Shown here: positions 52,806 to 61,560 of the stretch, piece after piece
Position numbering within the stretch: position 1 is the first letter of the stretch
Layout: every line of letters starts with the position of its first letter
Assembly (NCBI RefSeq): GCF_036010665.1
Contig: NZ_CP108581.1
Span: 3,453,501-3,517,500 of the forward strand
DNA: 64,000 nucleotides
Direction of reading: 5' to 3'
Origin: Microbispora sp. NBC_01189
GTDB lineage: Bacteria; Actinomycetota; Actinomycetes; Streptosporangiales; Streptosporangiaceae
Notes under the pieces: model-generated
Databases searched by the model: none
What the model was told of the DNA's origin: nothing
Seen by the model: the letters and a program-made list of their open reading frames with translations, nothing else
Made by a program: the position numbers and the translations under genes

Positions 52806-53468
52806 ATGGGCTGGCTGTTCGGCAGGGACAAGACGACGATGGTGGAGCCCACGGACGCGCTGCCGGGCCGGGCCGAGATCATGCCGGTGGCCACGCGCCA
52901 CCAGGTCCTCGGTGCGCCGCTGGCTCCGCCGTACCCCGAGGGAACGGAGATCGCCGAGTTCGGGCTGGGCTGCTTCTGGGGCGCCGAGCGCAAGTTCTGG
53001 CAGACCCCGGGCGTCGTCTCGACCGCGGTGGGCTACGCGGGCGGGTACACGCCCAACCCTACGTACGAGGAGGTCTGCTCCGGCCTCACCGGGCACACCG
53101 AGGTCGTCCGGGTGGTCTTCGACCCGGCCCAGGTGTCGTACGAGGAGCTTCTCAAGGTCTTCTGGGAGGCGCACGACCCCACCCAGGGCATGCGCCAGGG
53201 CAACGACGTCGGCACGCAGTACCGGTCGGCCGTCTACACCCACGGCCCCGAGCAGCTGGAGGCCGCTCTGGCGTCCCAGGACGCGTACCAGAAGGTGCTG
53301 ACCGAAGCCGGGTACGGCGAGATCACCACCGACATAGCCCCCGCCGGCGAGTTCTACTTCGCCGAGGATTATCACCAGCAATACCTTTTTAAGGTTCCAA
53401 ACGGCTACTGCGGCATCGGCGGCACCGGTGTGAGCTGCCCCGTCGGCCTGACGGCCAGCGAGAGCTGA
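52806..53468 (+). CDS. msrA: Peptide-methionine (S)-S-oxide reductase MsrA
   Basis: The 220-aa enzyme reduces methionine-S-sulfoxide. The active site Cys56 is in [11 protein letters not shown] and the recycling cysteines are Cys202 (NGYCG) and Cys211 (GTGVSCP). ATG 52806 is chosen because GGGGAGG lies just upstream and family members begin with the [12 protein letters not shown] segment. The gene is intact. Its last ~33 codons are the parent of the repeat copies found at 54.3, 55.1, 56.1, 57.6, 61.1 and 61.5 kb. Confidence 0.96.
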
Positions 53469-53492
53469 TCAGTCGCCGGGCGGGATCGTGAG
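53371..53492 (+). repeat. msrA 3' end, parental copy R0
   Basis: This covers codons YHQQYLF to the msrA stop plus 24 bp of 3' sequence. A stretch of 31 bp (from the codons of IGGTG to CPVG) is identical in R0, R1, R2 and R5. Similarity with R1 continues past the stop codon to 53492, exactly where the msrA terminator stem begins. Confidence 0.95.
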
Positions 53493-53527
53493 ACCTCCGA
53501 GCGGCCTGGCGCTACTCGGAGGTTTCC
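53493..53527 (+). terminator. msrA terminator
   Basis: ACCTCCGAG (53493-53501) pairs perfectly with CTCGGAGGT (53515-53523), followed by TTCC. It lies 25 bp after the msrA stop and before the first antitoxin promoter. Confidence 0.8.
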
Positions 53528-53544
53528 TGCGTCCGGTGCCGGTG

Positions 53545-53574
53545 GTTTGCTACTTGAAGTAGTAAACTGCCGCT
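53545..53574 (+). promoter_or_regulatory. Operator and leaderless promoter of the first TA module
   Basis: GTTTGCTACTT and AAGTAGTAAAC form an 11-bp inverted repeat with one mismatch around a central G (53545-53567). TAAACT (53563-53568), 6 bp before ATG 53575, is the -10. A palindrome over the promoter is usual for antitoxin autorepression. Confidence 0.7.
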
Positions 53575-53886
53575 ATGAGTACACCTGAACAGGCCTTCCC
53601 GCCCGGGGACGGGCCCGCGGCCAAGGTGAGCGTCTCCTTGCGAGCCGGCAACATCCGCGCCATCAAGGAGCGTGTCGGCGCGCGCGGGTTCTCCGCGTAC
53701 GTCGACGCCGCTGTGGAGCGGCAGATCGAGCGGGACCTACTGGAGGAGGCCCTGCAGGCGAACGAGAACGAGTGCGGTCCCATCCCGCAGCATCTGCGGG
53801 ACGAGGCTGAGCAGCTGTTCCGTAGCGTGAAGTCCGCTCCGGAGCTACAGGAGGAGCGTGGATGGCACGCGCACGAAGCAAGCTGA
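53575..53886 (+). CDS. Antitoxin of a PIN-domain TA module
   Basis: The 103-aa protein has an N-terminal segment AKVSVSLRAGNIRAIKERVGARGFSAYVDAAVERQIERDLL, which looks like a ribbon-helix-helix DNA-binding domain. The charged C-terminal half would bind and block the toxin. The start fits a leaderless -10 at 53563. It overlaps the toxin gene by 25 bp, so translation is coupled. Confidence 0.85.
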   Translation: MSTPEQAFPPGDGPAAKVSVSLRAGNIRAIKERVGARGFSAYVDAAVERQIERDLLEEALQANENECGPIPQHLRDEAEQLFRSVKSAPELQEERGWHAHEAS

Positions 53887-54278
53887 GTGCGGGGACGGTC
53901 ATCCTTGACTCCGAGGGACTCTCGAAGTGGTGCGCGGCCGACCAGCGAGTTACGGCGATCGTCCGAGAGGCACAGAACAACGACTTCCGCGTTGTTATCA
54001 GTGCCTTGACGCCTATCGAGGCCTTCGACGGCCGGGTGGCAAACGACCGGTTGCGCTGGCATCTGTCCCGGCTGCGTGTCGAGCCGGTGACCGAGGAGGT
54101 CTCCGTCCACGCGCTGGATCTGCTCCGTGAGAGCGGTCTTCACGGCCACAAGTACGCGATCGATGCCGTCGTGGCCGCCACGGCTCTTCGCTCCACCCGG
54201 CCCGTCATCGTCCTCACCTCGGACGAGGACGACATGAGCAAGCTCTGCGGAAAGGCAGTCCGCCTCGTGCGGGTGTAG
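53862..54278 (+). CDS. PIN-domain (VapC-like) ribonuclease toxin
   Basis: The 138-aa protein has the PIN-domain acidic residues in [12 protein letters not shown] (Asp), ALTPIEAF (Glu) and [13 protein letters not shown] (Asp). It probably cleaves RNA when freed from the antitoxin. The repeat copy R1 starts 6 bp after the stop. The cargo is thus compact: promoter, antitoxin, toxin, repeat. Confidence 0.87.
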
Positions 54279-54283
54279 GTGCT

Positions 54284-54430
54284 GAATTACTGCCCCAGCG
54301 ATACGACTACCACCAGCAATATTTGTTCAAGGTCCCGAACGGCTACTACGGCATCGGCGGCACCGGTGTGAGCTGCCCCGTCGGTCTGACCGCTGGCGAA
54401 GCCTGATCAGTTACCTGGCAGGATCGTGAG
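54284..54430 (+). repeat. msrA 3'-end copy R1
   Basis: This copy still reads an open MsrA tail: [25 protein letters not shown] and a TGA at 54404. The recycling Cys of NGYCG has become Tyr. It extends past the stop with the same 3' sequence as R0 (TGATCAG...GGATCGTGAG). On the left it continues with GAATTACTGCCC..., which resembles the left ends of R2, R4 and R6 more than msrA. Confidence 0.92.
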
Positions 54431-60150: not shown

Positions 60151-60242
60151 GGTGGTCTCCCTGCTTATGGGTTGTTCTCCGACCGCAGGCTAGGACGAAT
60201 ACCGGACAGAAACCGCCCAGTATCTCCACTAACTTGTATGTC

Positions 60243-60938
60243 GTGGCTCGACCTACTCACCGCGTGCTCACGCTGTTAGAGCTCTTGCAGTCGGGCGGCA
60301 CCCGGACGATGGCCGAGCTCGCCGACCGGCTCGGCGTCGACGAGCGCACCGTACGGCGGGTACCGGCTCACACCCCCGGATACCGCGTGCCTCCGCTCAT
60401 GCTGAGCGACGACGAGGCGCTCGCCGTGCTGCTCGGCCTGGTCGCCGGTCGGGGTTGATGACGACGACAGGAACGGCGAGTGAGACGGCGGCGGCCAAGA
60501 TTCGCCGCCGCCGACGGCCGGCGCAGCGAACGGACGCTGCATCCATACGGGCTCGTCGCCCATTCGGACCGGTGGTACGTCACGGGCGCTGATCCCAAGA
60601 TCGGTGAGGAGCGGACCTTACGGCTGGATCGCATCGTGGACGCGAGGACCCTGCCCGGTTCGTTTGAGCCGCCCGCCGGGCTTGATCCGGCGCAGCGCGT
60701 TCTGTCGGCCCTCGCCAAGGCTCCGTACCGGCATGAAGTGGTCCTGCTCATCCAGGGGACGGTCGAGCAGATCCGCGCCCGGCTTCCCGCCAGCGTCGCG
60801 ACTGTGGAGGAGCCCGCATCTGCGCACGACACAGATCGCGACACCGAGGGCTGGCTCCGCGTCGAGTTGCGAGCGGAGCGGCTCGACTGGTTGCCTCCGG
60901 TGCTCGCGTCGCTCGACCGGCCGTTCGTCATCGAGTGA
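60243..60938 (+). pseudogene. WYL-domain (YafY-type) regulator, internally deleted and frameshifted
   Basis: GTG 60243, 7 bp after TAACTT, starts a correct DeoR-like HTH (THRVLTLLELLQSGGTRTMAEL, RLGVDERTVRR). About 24 residues are then missing before PGYRVPPLMLSDDEALAVLLGL, and the frame ends at 60458. Further frames give ASETAAAKIRR and, from 60510, the WYL domain (LHPYGLVAHSDRWYVTGADP, then EVVLLIQGTVEQIRARLP). At least two lesions; not functional as one protein. Confidence 0.82.
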
Positions 60939-61020
60939 CCAGACGAACTCCGCGGCCTTGTCGCCGCGCTGGCTGACCGGCTCGCGGCTTCCGCCCGCAG
61001 GATCCCTCCTGCCCCGGGCA

Positions 61021-61133
61021 CAGTTGTCGCGTGAAGCGGAGGGCTTTCACCAGCGAATTTGCCGAACGGCTACTGCGGCCTCGGCGGCACCGGTGTGAGC
61101 TGCCCCGTCGGCCTGACCGCCGGCGAAGCCTGA
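61021..61133 (+). repeat. msrA 3'-end copy R5
   Basis: The right part ([22 protein letters not shown] and stop, 61060-61133) is almost the same as R2. The left part keeps the LLPEA-type upstream extension (TTGTCGCGTGAAGCGGAGGGC) but 8-9 bp around the codons of YLFKV are lost. The gap 60939-61276 otherwise contains only short flanking sequence and the antitoxin promoter. Confidence 0.9.
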
Positions 61134-61276
61134 GCGTGGGTCTCGTCGGCCCGGAGGCGCCAGGCTTCCCGCCTGAAGGCACTGGGCCGGCAGCCTCGTC
61201 AGCGGCGAGGTTCGCGGAAGTGAAGCAGAGACGCTACGGGACTGTCCGTAGCAGCCCGACTGATTACACTCGATGC

Positions 61277-61480
61277 ATGAGCGTGATGCGCGAGGAACTC
61301 CACCACCTGGTTGATCGGCTGCCAGAGGAGAAGGTGGCTCCTCTGCTCAGGCTCGTCCGCGATCAGCTCGAAGAGCCGCCTGTCGTACGCGACCTGCCGT
61401 TCATCGGCTTGCTTAGGCGCACTCATGCTGCTGCCGGAGCGGCTCTGAGGACCGTCTCGCCCCGCGGTCCTGGGCAGTGA
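61277..61480 (+). CDS. Orphan antitoxin-like protein, 67 aa
   Basis: ATG 61277 lies 6 bp after TACACT (61265-61270), so a leaderless start is likely. The product begins MSVMREELHHLVDRLPEEKV, close to the antitoxin at 55255. The second half (PPVVRDLPFIGLLRRTHAAAG) resembles the end of such antitoxins. No toxin gene follows; a PIN remnant lies at 61615. Confidence 0.7.
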   Translation: MSVMREELHHLVDRLPEEKVAPLLRLVRDQLEEPPVVRDLPFIGLLRRTHAAAGAALRTVSPRGPGQ

Positions 61481-61514
61481 TCTGTTGGTCGAACGGCACG
61501 GGCGCGAGCCTTGC

Positions 61515-61560
61515 GATTTGTTGCCTGAAGTGGAGTGCTACCACCAGCAATACCTCTTTC
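61515..61560 (+). repeat. msrA 3'-end copy R6 (left end only)
   Basis: GATTTGTTGCCTGAAGTGGAG followed by the codons of CYHQQYLF. This matches the left ends of R2 and R5. Everything after YLF is missing and replaced by unrelated sequence. Confidence 0.8.

What the first reader, a model, noticed from the sequence alone, without database searches (positions are those of the whole stretch)
53371..61560. Cassette-like array built on repeated copies of the msrA 3' end
Seen: after intact msrA, six further partial copies of its last ~33 codons (R1-R6) occur in the same orientation. They are separated by short cargo, chiefly toxin-antitoxin modules. R1 and R4 begin within about 6 bp after a toxin stop codon. 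Known: elements that integrate into a gene's 3' end restore the gene and leave a displaced 3' end at the far side; integron cassettes each carry a recombination site. Inference: TA modules have accumulated serially at msrA, each with a repeat acting as an attachment-like site, or the array is used by an enzyme encoded elsewhere. No recombinase is in the window. I know of no described cassette array of this kind at msrA, but cannot search.
Basis: partly seen in the sequence, partly recalled or inferred. Interest (0 to 1): 0.92.

Follow-up and report, generated by a model that had tools for sequence, protein, structure and literature searches.

The report
Toxin-antitoxin cassette array at msrA
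Soil actinomycetes related to Microbispora keep a variable row of small toxin-antitoxin and defence genes behind the housekeeping gene msrA; relatives show that serine recombinases insert mobile DNA there, so the row looks like an integron built by a different kind of enzyme.

Summary
In detail: intact msrA is followed by six same-strand tail copies; no other strong copy exists in the 7.37-Mb genome. Tail copies recur in 14 of 15 Microbispora genomes, with differing cargo. Complete array copies begin with a ~20-nt arm (GAATTATTGC...) that msrA lacks, then the shared core CTACCACCAGCA. The enzyme is in relatives: large serine recombinases (LSR-A) lie 16-36 bp from a tail copy in 15 of 15 fetched loci at >=72% identity, against 0 of 15 at 58-66%. 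In 13 of 13 cases with a mapped left end, the LSR-A element directly follows msrA; with two remnants, its msrA tail carries a diagnostic motif (15/15; 0/43 elsewhere). A second recombinase (LSR-B) uses a site ~50 bp downstream. Toxin-antitoxin (TA) cassettes carry the LSR-A arm, often just after a toxin stop, recur across species and genera, and change order. The window genome has no PF07508 match: its array is an orphan. Best reading: serial serine-integrase insertion at msrA, with recombinase-less TA/defence cassettes left behind or carried along. It works like an integron or SCC island but belongs to neither. Cassette mobilisation is inferred, not shown.

The parts
52806..53468 (+). msrA, intact target gene; its last ~32 codons are the donated 3' end
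   Evidence: tblastn self and relatives; tail GC3 0.38 against body 0.95 in this gene
53373..53380 (+). R0 core CACCAGCA in msrA (class-1 crossover region)
   Evidence: stretch shared by msrA and complete array sites, with different sequence to its left
53575..53886 (+). cassette 1 antitoxin candidate (no Pfam match)
   Evidence: ORF overlapping the toxin start
53862..54278 (+). cassette 1 PIN-domain toxin
   Evidence: PF01850 4e-7; same cassette in 6 Microbispora species at 89-98%
54284..54406 (+). R1: arm GAATTACTGC + core + tail, just after the toxin stop
   Evidence: nhmmer 109.9 bits
54407..54841 (-). cassette 2 PIN toxin
   Evidence: PF01850 8e-13
54838..55017 (-). cassette 2 antitoxin candidate
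   Evidence: ORF overlapping toxin 2; no Pfam match
55083..55203 (+). R2, with a 1-nt deletion in the tail
   Evidence: 120.9 bits
55255..55467 (+). cassette 3 antitoxin candidate
   Evidence: ORF overlapping the next toxin; only sub-threshold Pfam matches
55421..55912 (+). cassette 3 PIN toxin
   Evidence: PF01850 6e-11
56066..56140 (+). R3, tail only, arm lost
   Evidence: 54.6 bits, model 47-122
56279..56638 (-). DUF4288-like protein
   Evidence: PF14119 2e-4, below cut-off
56741..57049 (+). cassette 4 Phd/YefM-type antitoxin
   Evidence: PF02604 6e-6, slightly below cut-off
57053..57571 (+). cassette 4 ParE toxin
   Evidence: PF05016 1e-8
57577..57683 (+). R4, just after the ParE stop, two 1-nt deletions in the tail
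   Evidence: 95.4 bits
57690..61021 (.). cassette 5: regulator, membrane-protein, VOC-like and WYL-like genes (names by eye), last regulator apparently broken; shared with M. amethystogenes
   Evidence: cassette cluster at 93% identity; ORFs
61022..61133 (+). R5
   Evidence: 87.4 bits
61274..61480 (+). lone antitoxin-like gene resembling that of cassette 3
   Evidence: direct repeat D4 and ORFs
61516..61567 (+). R6: arm + core + 21 nt of tail, end of array
   Evidence: 34.9 bits, E 4e-9

Best explanation
This is an orphan accretion array made by serine integrases at the msrA 3' end. SHOWN by comparison: integrative elements carrying a large serine recombinase (LSR-A) sit in the 3' end of msrA, joined at or close to CACCAGCA. 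Each supplies a new msrA 3' end (half-site P': RN(K/I/V)NGYCG-type codons) and has another tail at its far side behind the arm P (GAATTATTGC...). A second recombinase, LSR-B, is joined ~50 bp downstream at GGCACCGG. SHOWN: TA and other modules are bounded by sites with the same P arm and recur, in different order, across species and genera. INFERRED: the array junctions are P.B' (attR type), so when LSR-A and a directionality factor are present, attL at msrA could recombine with any downstream repeat. LSR-A would then excise alone, leaving TA cassettes flush behind a restored msrA, or with one or more TA cassettes as cargo, and deposit them in the next host. The TA modules persist by addiction and defence after LSR-A leaves. 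The window is that left-behind state: tails have decayed and no PF07508 recombinase remains in the genome.
For: Tail copies in 14 of 15 Microbispora genomes. In 58 regions containing msrA, 167 of 167 tails lie on the msrA strand and none upstream of msrA; 39 more lie on 9 contig pieces without msrA, which I oriented myself, one strand within each. LSR-A domains PF00239+PF07508, weak zinc ribbon. LSR-A loci >=72% identical: 15 of 15 fetched have a tail 16-36 bp from the gene's matched 5' end; 58-66%: 0 of 15. The msrA-site recombinases form one clade, 99/96, 15 against 16 rows. In 13 of 13 with a mapped left end (11 full-length genes, G194 and G248 broken or cut) the element directly follows msrA. 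P' motif in the msrA tail: 15 of 15 LSR-A-first, 0 of 43 others, motif chosen after seeing sequences. Tail GC3 0.96 in 14 empty loci, 0.76 and 0.75 in 15 LSR-A-first and 29 other loci, body 0.92-0.95, p=5e-5. Arm TTGC at exactly -21: LSR-A sites 13 of 14, other array sites 46 of 74, msrA 0 of 57; the other 61 of 206 tails lack the exact core and were left out. LSR-B: 9 of 10 near-full-length copies >=82% identical abut a class-2 tail. Ten cassette families shared by 2-6 species. ParE homologues: class-1 site 6-11 positions after the stop in 13 of 30 fetched loci. Order: PIN1 then ParE in G014, ParE then a PIN1 homologue in G200 and G230. G000 has no PF07508 match.
Against: No excised circle or empty/occupied strain pair was seen. 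TA cassettes carry B'-like, not P', right halves, so they are not simple LSR-A clones, and how they gained a P arm flush with a toxin stop is unexplained. 28 of 74 non-LSR array sites lack TTGC at -21. TA homologues also occur with no tail in the fetched locus (8 of 33 PIN1 and 7 of 34 ParE rows, some loci counted twice). One empty locus (G092) encodes RNKNG with GC-rich codons and no LSR-A in the fetched DNA. No directionality factor was identified. The prediction that the last tail is native-like (high GC3) failed: inner 0.66, last 0.68, p=0.68, 18 arrays. Unrelated sites are already 85% alike over the 15 nt from the core, so the crossover cannot be placed to the base. At a looser threshold one weak tail hit (14 bits) in G180 is on the opposite strand.
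Confidence: 0.75

Rival explanations
1. True cassette mobilisation in trans: each TA unit circularises at its own P.B' site and LSR-A inserts it directly at msrA attB.
For: Single-TA units shared between species; msrA tail lacks the P' motif in the 29 non-empty loci where LSR-A is not first; single cassettes of 0.8-1.5 kb, too short for an LSR gene and holding one candidate TA pair, behind msrA in Kutzneria and two Pseudonocardiales MAGs.
Against: Needs attB x attR-type recombination, which serine integrases normally do not perform (recalled). LSR-A itself is first in all 13 mapped cases, never inside an array.
Confidence: 0.4
2. Homologous recombination between ~100-bp tails spreads cassettes; the recombinase only founded the locus.
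For: Tails after +60 are mosaic within one cassette family (PIN1); the crossover is not placed to the base.
Against: In two of four cassette families profiled (PINx, PIN2) the tail from the core onward travels with the cassette body, 0.69-1.00 at +15 to +135 against an ungapped background of 0.31-0.69; no significant within-genome homogenisation.
Confidence: 0.2
3. Decayed tandem duplications of msrA or its tail.
For: Copies are msrA-like and several are degenerate.
Against: Complete copies have a non-msrA arm in place of msrA upstream of the core. Within-genome tail identity is not significantly higher than between genomes. Serine recombinases abut the repeats.
Confidence: 0.02
4. A classical integron or CALIN (attC cassettes without integrase).
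For: One-orientation array of cassettes with several TA genes.
Against: Recombinases abutting the sites in relatives are serine-type; the sites tested do not fold as single strands better than shuffles (z +1.2, +1.3, -0.3, -0.3).
Confidence: 0.02

Closest known systems
SCC/SCCmec and the enterococcal ECC (CcrAB serine recombinases at the rlmH 3' end)
   Same: Large serine recombinases insert at the 3' end of a conserved gene; attL/attR flanks; variable cargo; complex islands reported in S. aureus (PMC6222049, passages read).
   Different: Target msrA, unrelated host phylum, one LSR gene per element seen, units down to 0.5-1 kb each with its own site, up to 9 sites in a row (G001, msrA included), two recombinases with offset crossovers in one gene end.
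CIME / accretion-mobilisation islands (tandem integrative elements with recombinase-less remnants; recalled)
   Same: Recombinase-less units between att sites next to an autonomous element at a gene 3' end.
   Different: Serine, not tyrosine, integrase; some remnants are minimal single-operon TA cassettes shared between genera.
Integron / CALIN
   Same: One-directional array of small cassettes, TA pairs among them, one site per cassette, variable order, orphan arrays without integrase (PMC8618304, passages read).
   Different: Serine recombinase; no attC-like single-strand fold in the sites tested; the platform is a housekeeping gene whose product is altered.
AICE (actinomycete integrative conjugative elements)
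   Same: LSR-A elements in G001 and G218 carry a pSAM2-type RepSA; 19 of 144 AICEs (~14%) used a serine recombinase (PMC3218068, passages read).
   Different: No transfer translocase found among the ORFs scanned; associated with cassette arrays at msrA.

Membership tests
Integron | IntI tyrosine recombinase next to attI | tested here: not met
   Recombinases abutting the sites are serine type; the 12 of 18 G000 PF00589 matches that I count in the truncated list lie outside the window
Integron | attC sites that fold as single strands | tested here: not met
   4 sites, one on both strands: z +1.18, +1.31, -0.27, -0.25; reverse +0.85
Integron | Same-orientation array of small cassettes with one site each | tested here: met
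   167 of 167 tails on the msrA strand in 58 regions with msrA; of 47 segments with complete class-1 sites at both ends, 11 are 0.8-0.95 kb, though the median is 2.2 kb
Serine-integrase integrative element at a gene 3' end | LSR gene adjacent to one junction, target gene 3' end replaced | tested here: met
   In relatives. Not in the window genome
Serine-integrase integrative element at a gene 3' end | Excised circle with attP | not testable with these tools
   Needs DNA from an LSR-A strain
SCC | rlmH target | tested here: not met
   Target is msrA
SCC | ccr recombinase genes | not tested
   No comparison with Ccr proteins was run; Pfam gives only the general Resolvase/Recombinase domains
AICE | RepSA-type replication initiator | tested here: met
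   PF20199 2e-160 in G001, 7e-156 in G218; other elements not scanned one by one
AICE | TraB/FtsK-type translocase | tested here: inconclusive
   Not among 8 ORFs of the G218 element or 5 of the G001 element scanned; other elements not scanned
CIME | Recombinase-less unit flanked by att sites next to a mobile element using the same sites | tested here: met
   Arm shared by LSR-A sites (13 of 14) and other array sites (46 of 74); mobilisation itself not tested

The most novel reading that the evidence does not exclude
A serine-integrase counterpart of the integron: msrA is a permanent platform whose attachment site is rebuilt at every insertion. The array junctions are equivalent attR-type sites, so one recombinase can move itself with any number of neighbouring TA/defence cassettes, and each event also swaps the C-terminus of the MsrA repair enzyme.
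Probability: 0.4. Interest if true: 0.9.

Novelty: new variant of a known kind. Interest (0 to 1): 0.8.

Why it matters
It would show that integron-like stockpiling of TA and anti-phage genes has arisen with a serine recombinase, in soil actinomycetes. It gives a family-wide landmark (the msrA tail) for finding new defence genes, a natural attB used by at least two serine integrases that might serve for engineering Microbispora and Nonomuraea, and a case in which mobile DNA repeatedly rewrites the C-terminus of a housekeeping enzyme.

Tried and rejected
Rejected: tandem msrA duplication; integron attC folding; a tyrosine recombinase as driver (10-23 PF00589 matches per Microbispora genome, no link to arrays followed up). 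Failed or null tests: the last tail should be native-like in GC3 (not so); within-genome homogenisation of tails (p 0.07 with msrA included, 0.21 without). The identity jump at the core is weak evidence by itself, because unrelated sites also reach 0.85 there. The viral-contig scan gave 15 pattern matches, none a convincing tail (best 12.3 bits). Phage records: no LSR-A relative at E 1e-30; plasmid records: one at 64% in an 11.85-Mb record. The ncbifam census was uninformative. Papers: nine searches listed nothing about msrA as an integration site; bioRxiv and most subscription journals are not held, so absence from print is not shown.

Rows dropped: LSR-A loci were fetched for 30 of 57 matches; a 75% fragment in G144 was not examined, and a 78% fragment in G045 was seen beside a tail. 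LSR-B loci for 30 of 31 matches. ParE and PIN1: the 30 best loci each. Two of the 15 LSR-A loci (G233, G075) run off contig ends, so their left side is unknown. The label 'empty' means no second tail in the fetched downstream DNA (2.2-12.6 kb). Boundary profiles used 6 of 6 PIN1, 3 of 6 PINx, 2 of 3 PIN2 and 2 of 3 ParE segments. Cargo census: 138 of 182 unique ORFs, whose long segments include ordinary chromosomal genes.
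Full report
WHAT IS THERE. The window is part of a complete 7.37-Mb genome whose genus-mates match named Microbispora contigs by length. Intact msrA is followed by R1-R6. R1-R5 are the only other strong copies of the msrA 3' end in the genome; R6 needs the profile to be significant. Between them lie three PIN-toxin modules, a Phd/YefM-ParE module, a 3.4-kb regulatory segment and a lone antitoxin-like gene.

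GENUS LEVEL. 14 of 15 Microbispora genomes give 3-9 matches, msrA itself included; G013 (92% complete) gave none. In six of them (G003, G005, G007, G008, G009, G011) some copies are on contigs other than that of msrA. A profile built from the window found about 100 copies in 22 fetched regions. Over all 67 regions later examined it was 206 at E <= 1e-3. In the 58 regions holding msrA, 167 of 167 are on the msrA strand and none is upstream of msrA; the other 39 are on 9 pieces without msrA that I turned by their tails, one strand in each. At a looser threshold one 14-bit hit in G180 is on the opposite strand. Copy number, segment length (138 bp to 16 kb) and content vary. Of 79 segments 47 have complete class-1 sites at both ends, median 2.2 kb, 11 of them 0.8-0.95 kb. 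Ten cassette families are shared by 2-6 species at 80-99% identity and 48 of 79 segments are unique.

ANATOMY OF THE SITE. Array copies and msrA agree from CACCAGCA onward. Upstream, msrA has its own codons and complete array copies have a conserved arm, consensus GAaTTaTTGCctgAag. TTGC at exactly -21 from the core: LSR-adjacent sites 13 of 14, other array sites 46 of 74, msrA 0 of 57; 61 of the 206 tails lack the exact core string and were not counted. Unrelated Microbispora sites are 0.54 alike just left of the core, 0.85 over the first 15 nt and 0.63-0.69 to +60, then 0.31-0.44 (ungapped). Within two of four shared cassette families (PINx, PIN2) the tail stays at 0.69-1.00 through +135, so it travels with the body. 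PIN1 is mosaic at +60 to +130 and the ParE pair loses similarity further in. An in-frame MsrA tail by a strict motif is kept in 51 of 57 msrA, 10 of 14 LSR-A-adjacent and 35 of 74 other sites.

THE RECOMBINASES. ORFs in the M. amethystogenes array (G001) include a 505-aa protein with Resolvase and Recombinase domains and a weak zinc-ribbon match, whose start abuts a repeat, in an element with a pSAM2-type RepSA and a GntR regulator. In 250 genomes of the family (drawn from a larger group) the fetched homologues split cleanly: >=72% identical, 15 of 15 have a tail 16-36 bp away; 58-66% identical, 0 of 15. The msrA-site group is one clade with support 99/96. In 13 of 13 cases with a mapped left end the LSR-A element is the first thing after msrA; 11 of these genes are full-length, G194 is split and G248 cut. 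In those plus two remnants (G014, G045) the msrA tail carries CGCAA[CT]N[AT][AT]AACGG (15 of 15), found in 0 of 43 other msrA tails; the motif was written after looking at the sequences. LSR-B (G010) lies in arrays at a second crossover ~50 bp downstream (arm CATGGGTCACATAGATACACGC, core GGCACCGG): 9 of 10 near-full-length copies >=82% identical. The tenth, G002, shows the junction only at a looser threshold (12 bits).

THE TAIL IS FOREIGN. Third-position GC of the eight codons after the core is 0.96 in 14 loci without a second tail, 0.76 in 15 LSR-A-first loci and 0.75 in 29 others, while the gene body stays at 0.92-0.95 (p=5e-5). The msrA 3' end is therefore most simply explained as replaced by incoming DNA. 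One empty locus, G092, encodes the RNKNG type with GC-rich codons, perhaps an old, ameliorated insertion.

DISTRIBUTION. A pattern scan of 84,980 genomes gave 62 stretches. 56 contain the tail profile and six do not (L154, L158, L167, L168, L188, L190). Genera include Microbispora, Nonomuraea, Microtetraspora, Planobispora, Planotetraspora, Sphaerisporangium, Streptosporangium, Herbidospora, Kutzneria, Streptomyces fuscichromogenes (one weak site, 46.7 bits) and Pseudonocardiales MAGs. In Kutzneria and two Pseudonocardiales MAGs msrA is followed by one short cassette with one candidate TA pair (Gp49-like + HTH; DUF433 + PIN-like; a DUF6247-containing antitoxin candidate + a small unmatched protein).

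CASSETTES MOVE. The window's PIN module matches in 54 of 250 genomes and its ParE toxin in 58 of 250. Of 30 fetched loci each, ParE has a class-1 site starting 6-11 positions after its stop in 13, and PIN1 has one at 7-32 positions in 10; others sit at different junction types or away from tails. G014 has PIN1 then ParE; G200 and G230 have a ParE homologue (85%) then a PIN1 homologue (75-76% DNA) (coordinates). Segments between tails also hold Shedu (5e-154), a DRT-type reverse transcriptase (1.5e-187) and MADS proteins; Shedu is in the G001 array.

MECHANISM. Shown by comparison: LSR-A elements sit in msrA, their own tail completes the gene, and a P.B' junction lies at their far side. Inferred: since TA junctions are also P.B', attL at msrA could pair with any of them, so LSR-A could leave alone or with neighbours. 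A stronger version, direct capture of TA circles, is the first rival. How a TA operon came to end flush with a P arm is unexplained, and the expected native-like last tail was not found. The window genome has no PF07508 match, so its array looks stranded.

WHAT IS KNOWN. SCC and ECC use serine recombinases at the rlmH 3' end (PMC6222049, passages). Integrons are cassette arrays with tyrosine recombinases, TA cassettes among the most reported, and orphan forms called CALINs (PMC8618304, passages). AICEs sometimes use serine recombinases, and one was reported to excise without an identifiable directionality factor (PMC3218068, passages). Nine searches of the held library listed no description of msrA as such a site. 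Membership in integrons and SCC fails on tested features; the working principle resembles both.

Noticed in passing
G134:C1:2548640-2548721 (L215 8632-8723) and L215 9671-9722: Two tail-like sites on one strand 2.2 Mb from msrA, one with the class-1 arm: possible off-target insertion of a cassette.
   Followed up: partly
L338-L345 and L301, L304-L308, just after toxin stops: Further junction types (model start ~57 and ~70-72 with other arms) beside ParE and PIN1 homologues, suggesting additional recombinases that use the msrA 3' end.
   Followed up: partly
msrA tail of G007 and internal tails in G002, G008, G012: MsrA C-termini of a different type (GTGVNAGDPSAWCPTGL...) with changed cysteine spacing; could alter the enzyme's resolving step.
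   Followed up: no
L107-L111, L113-L118, L089-L093: LSR-A homologues at 58-66% identity sit elsewhere in the genomes; their target is unknown.
   Followed up: no
L048:16547-17998 and G001 19479-21830 of the joined L048+L049 region: A Shedu SduA gene (Pfam) and a type I methylase/specificity-like gene (named by eye) inside the M. amethystogenes array.
   Followed up: partly
contig ends of G003, G005, G007, G008, G009, G011: Draft contigs end near or inside these arrays, so array length is probably underestimated in drafts.
   Followed up: no
NZ_LT559118.1: An 11.85-Mb Nonomuraea gerenzanensis record is listed as a plasmid in PLSDB; by its size it looks like a chromosome.
   Followed up: no
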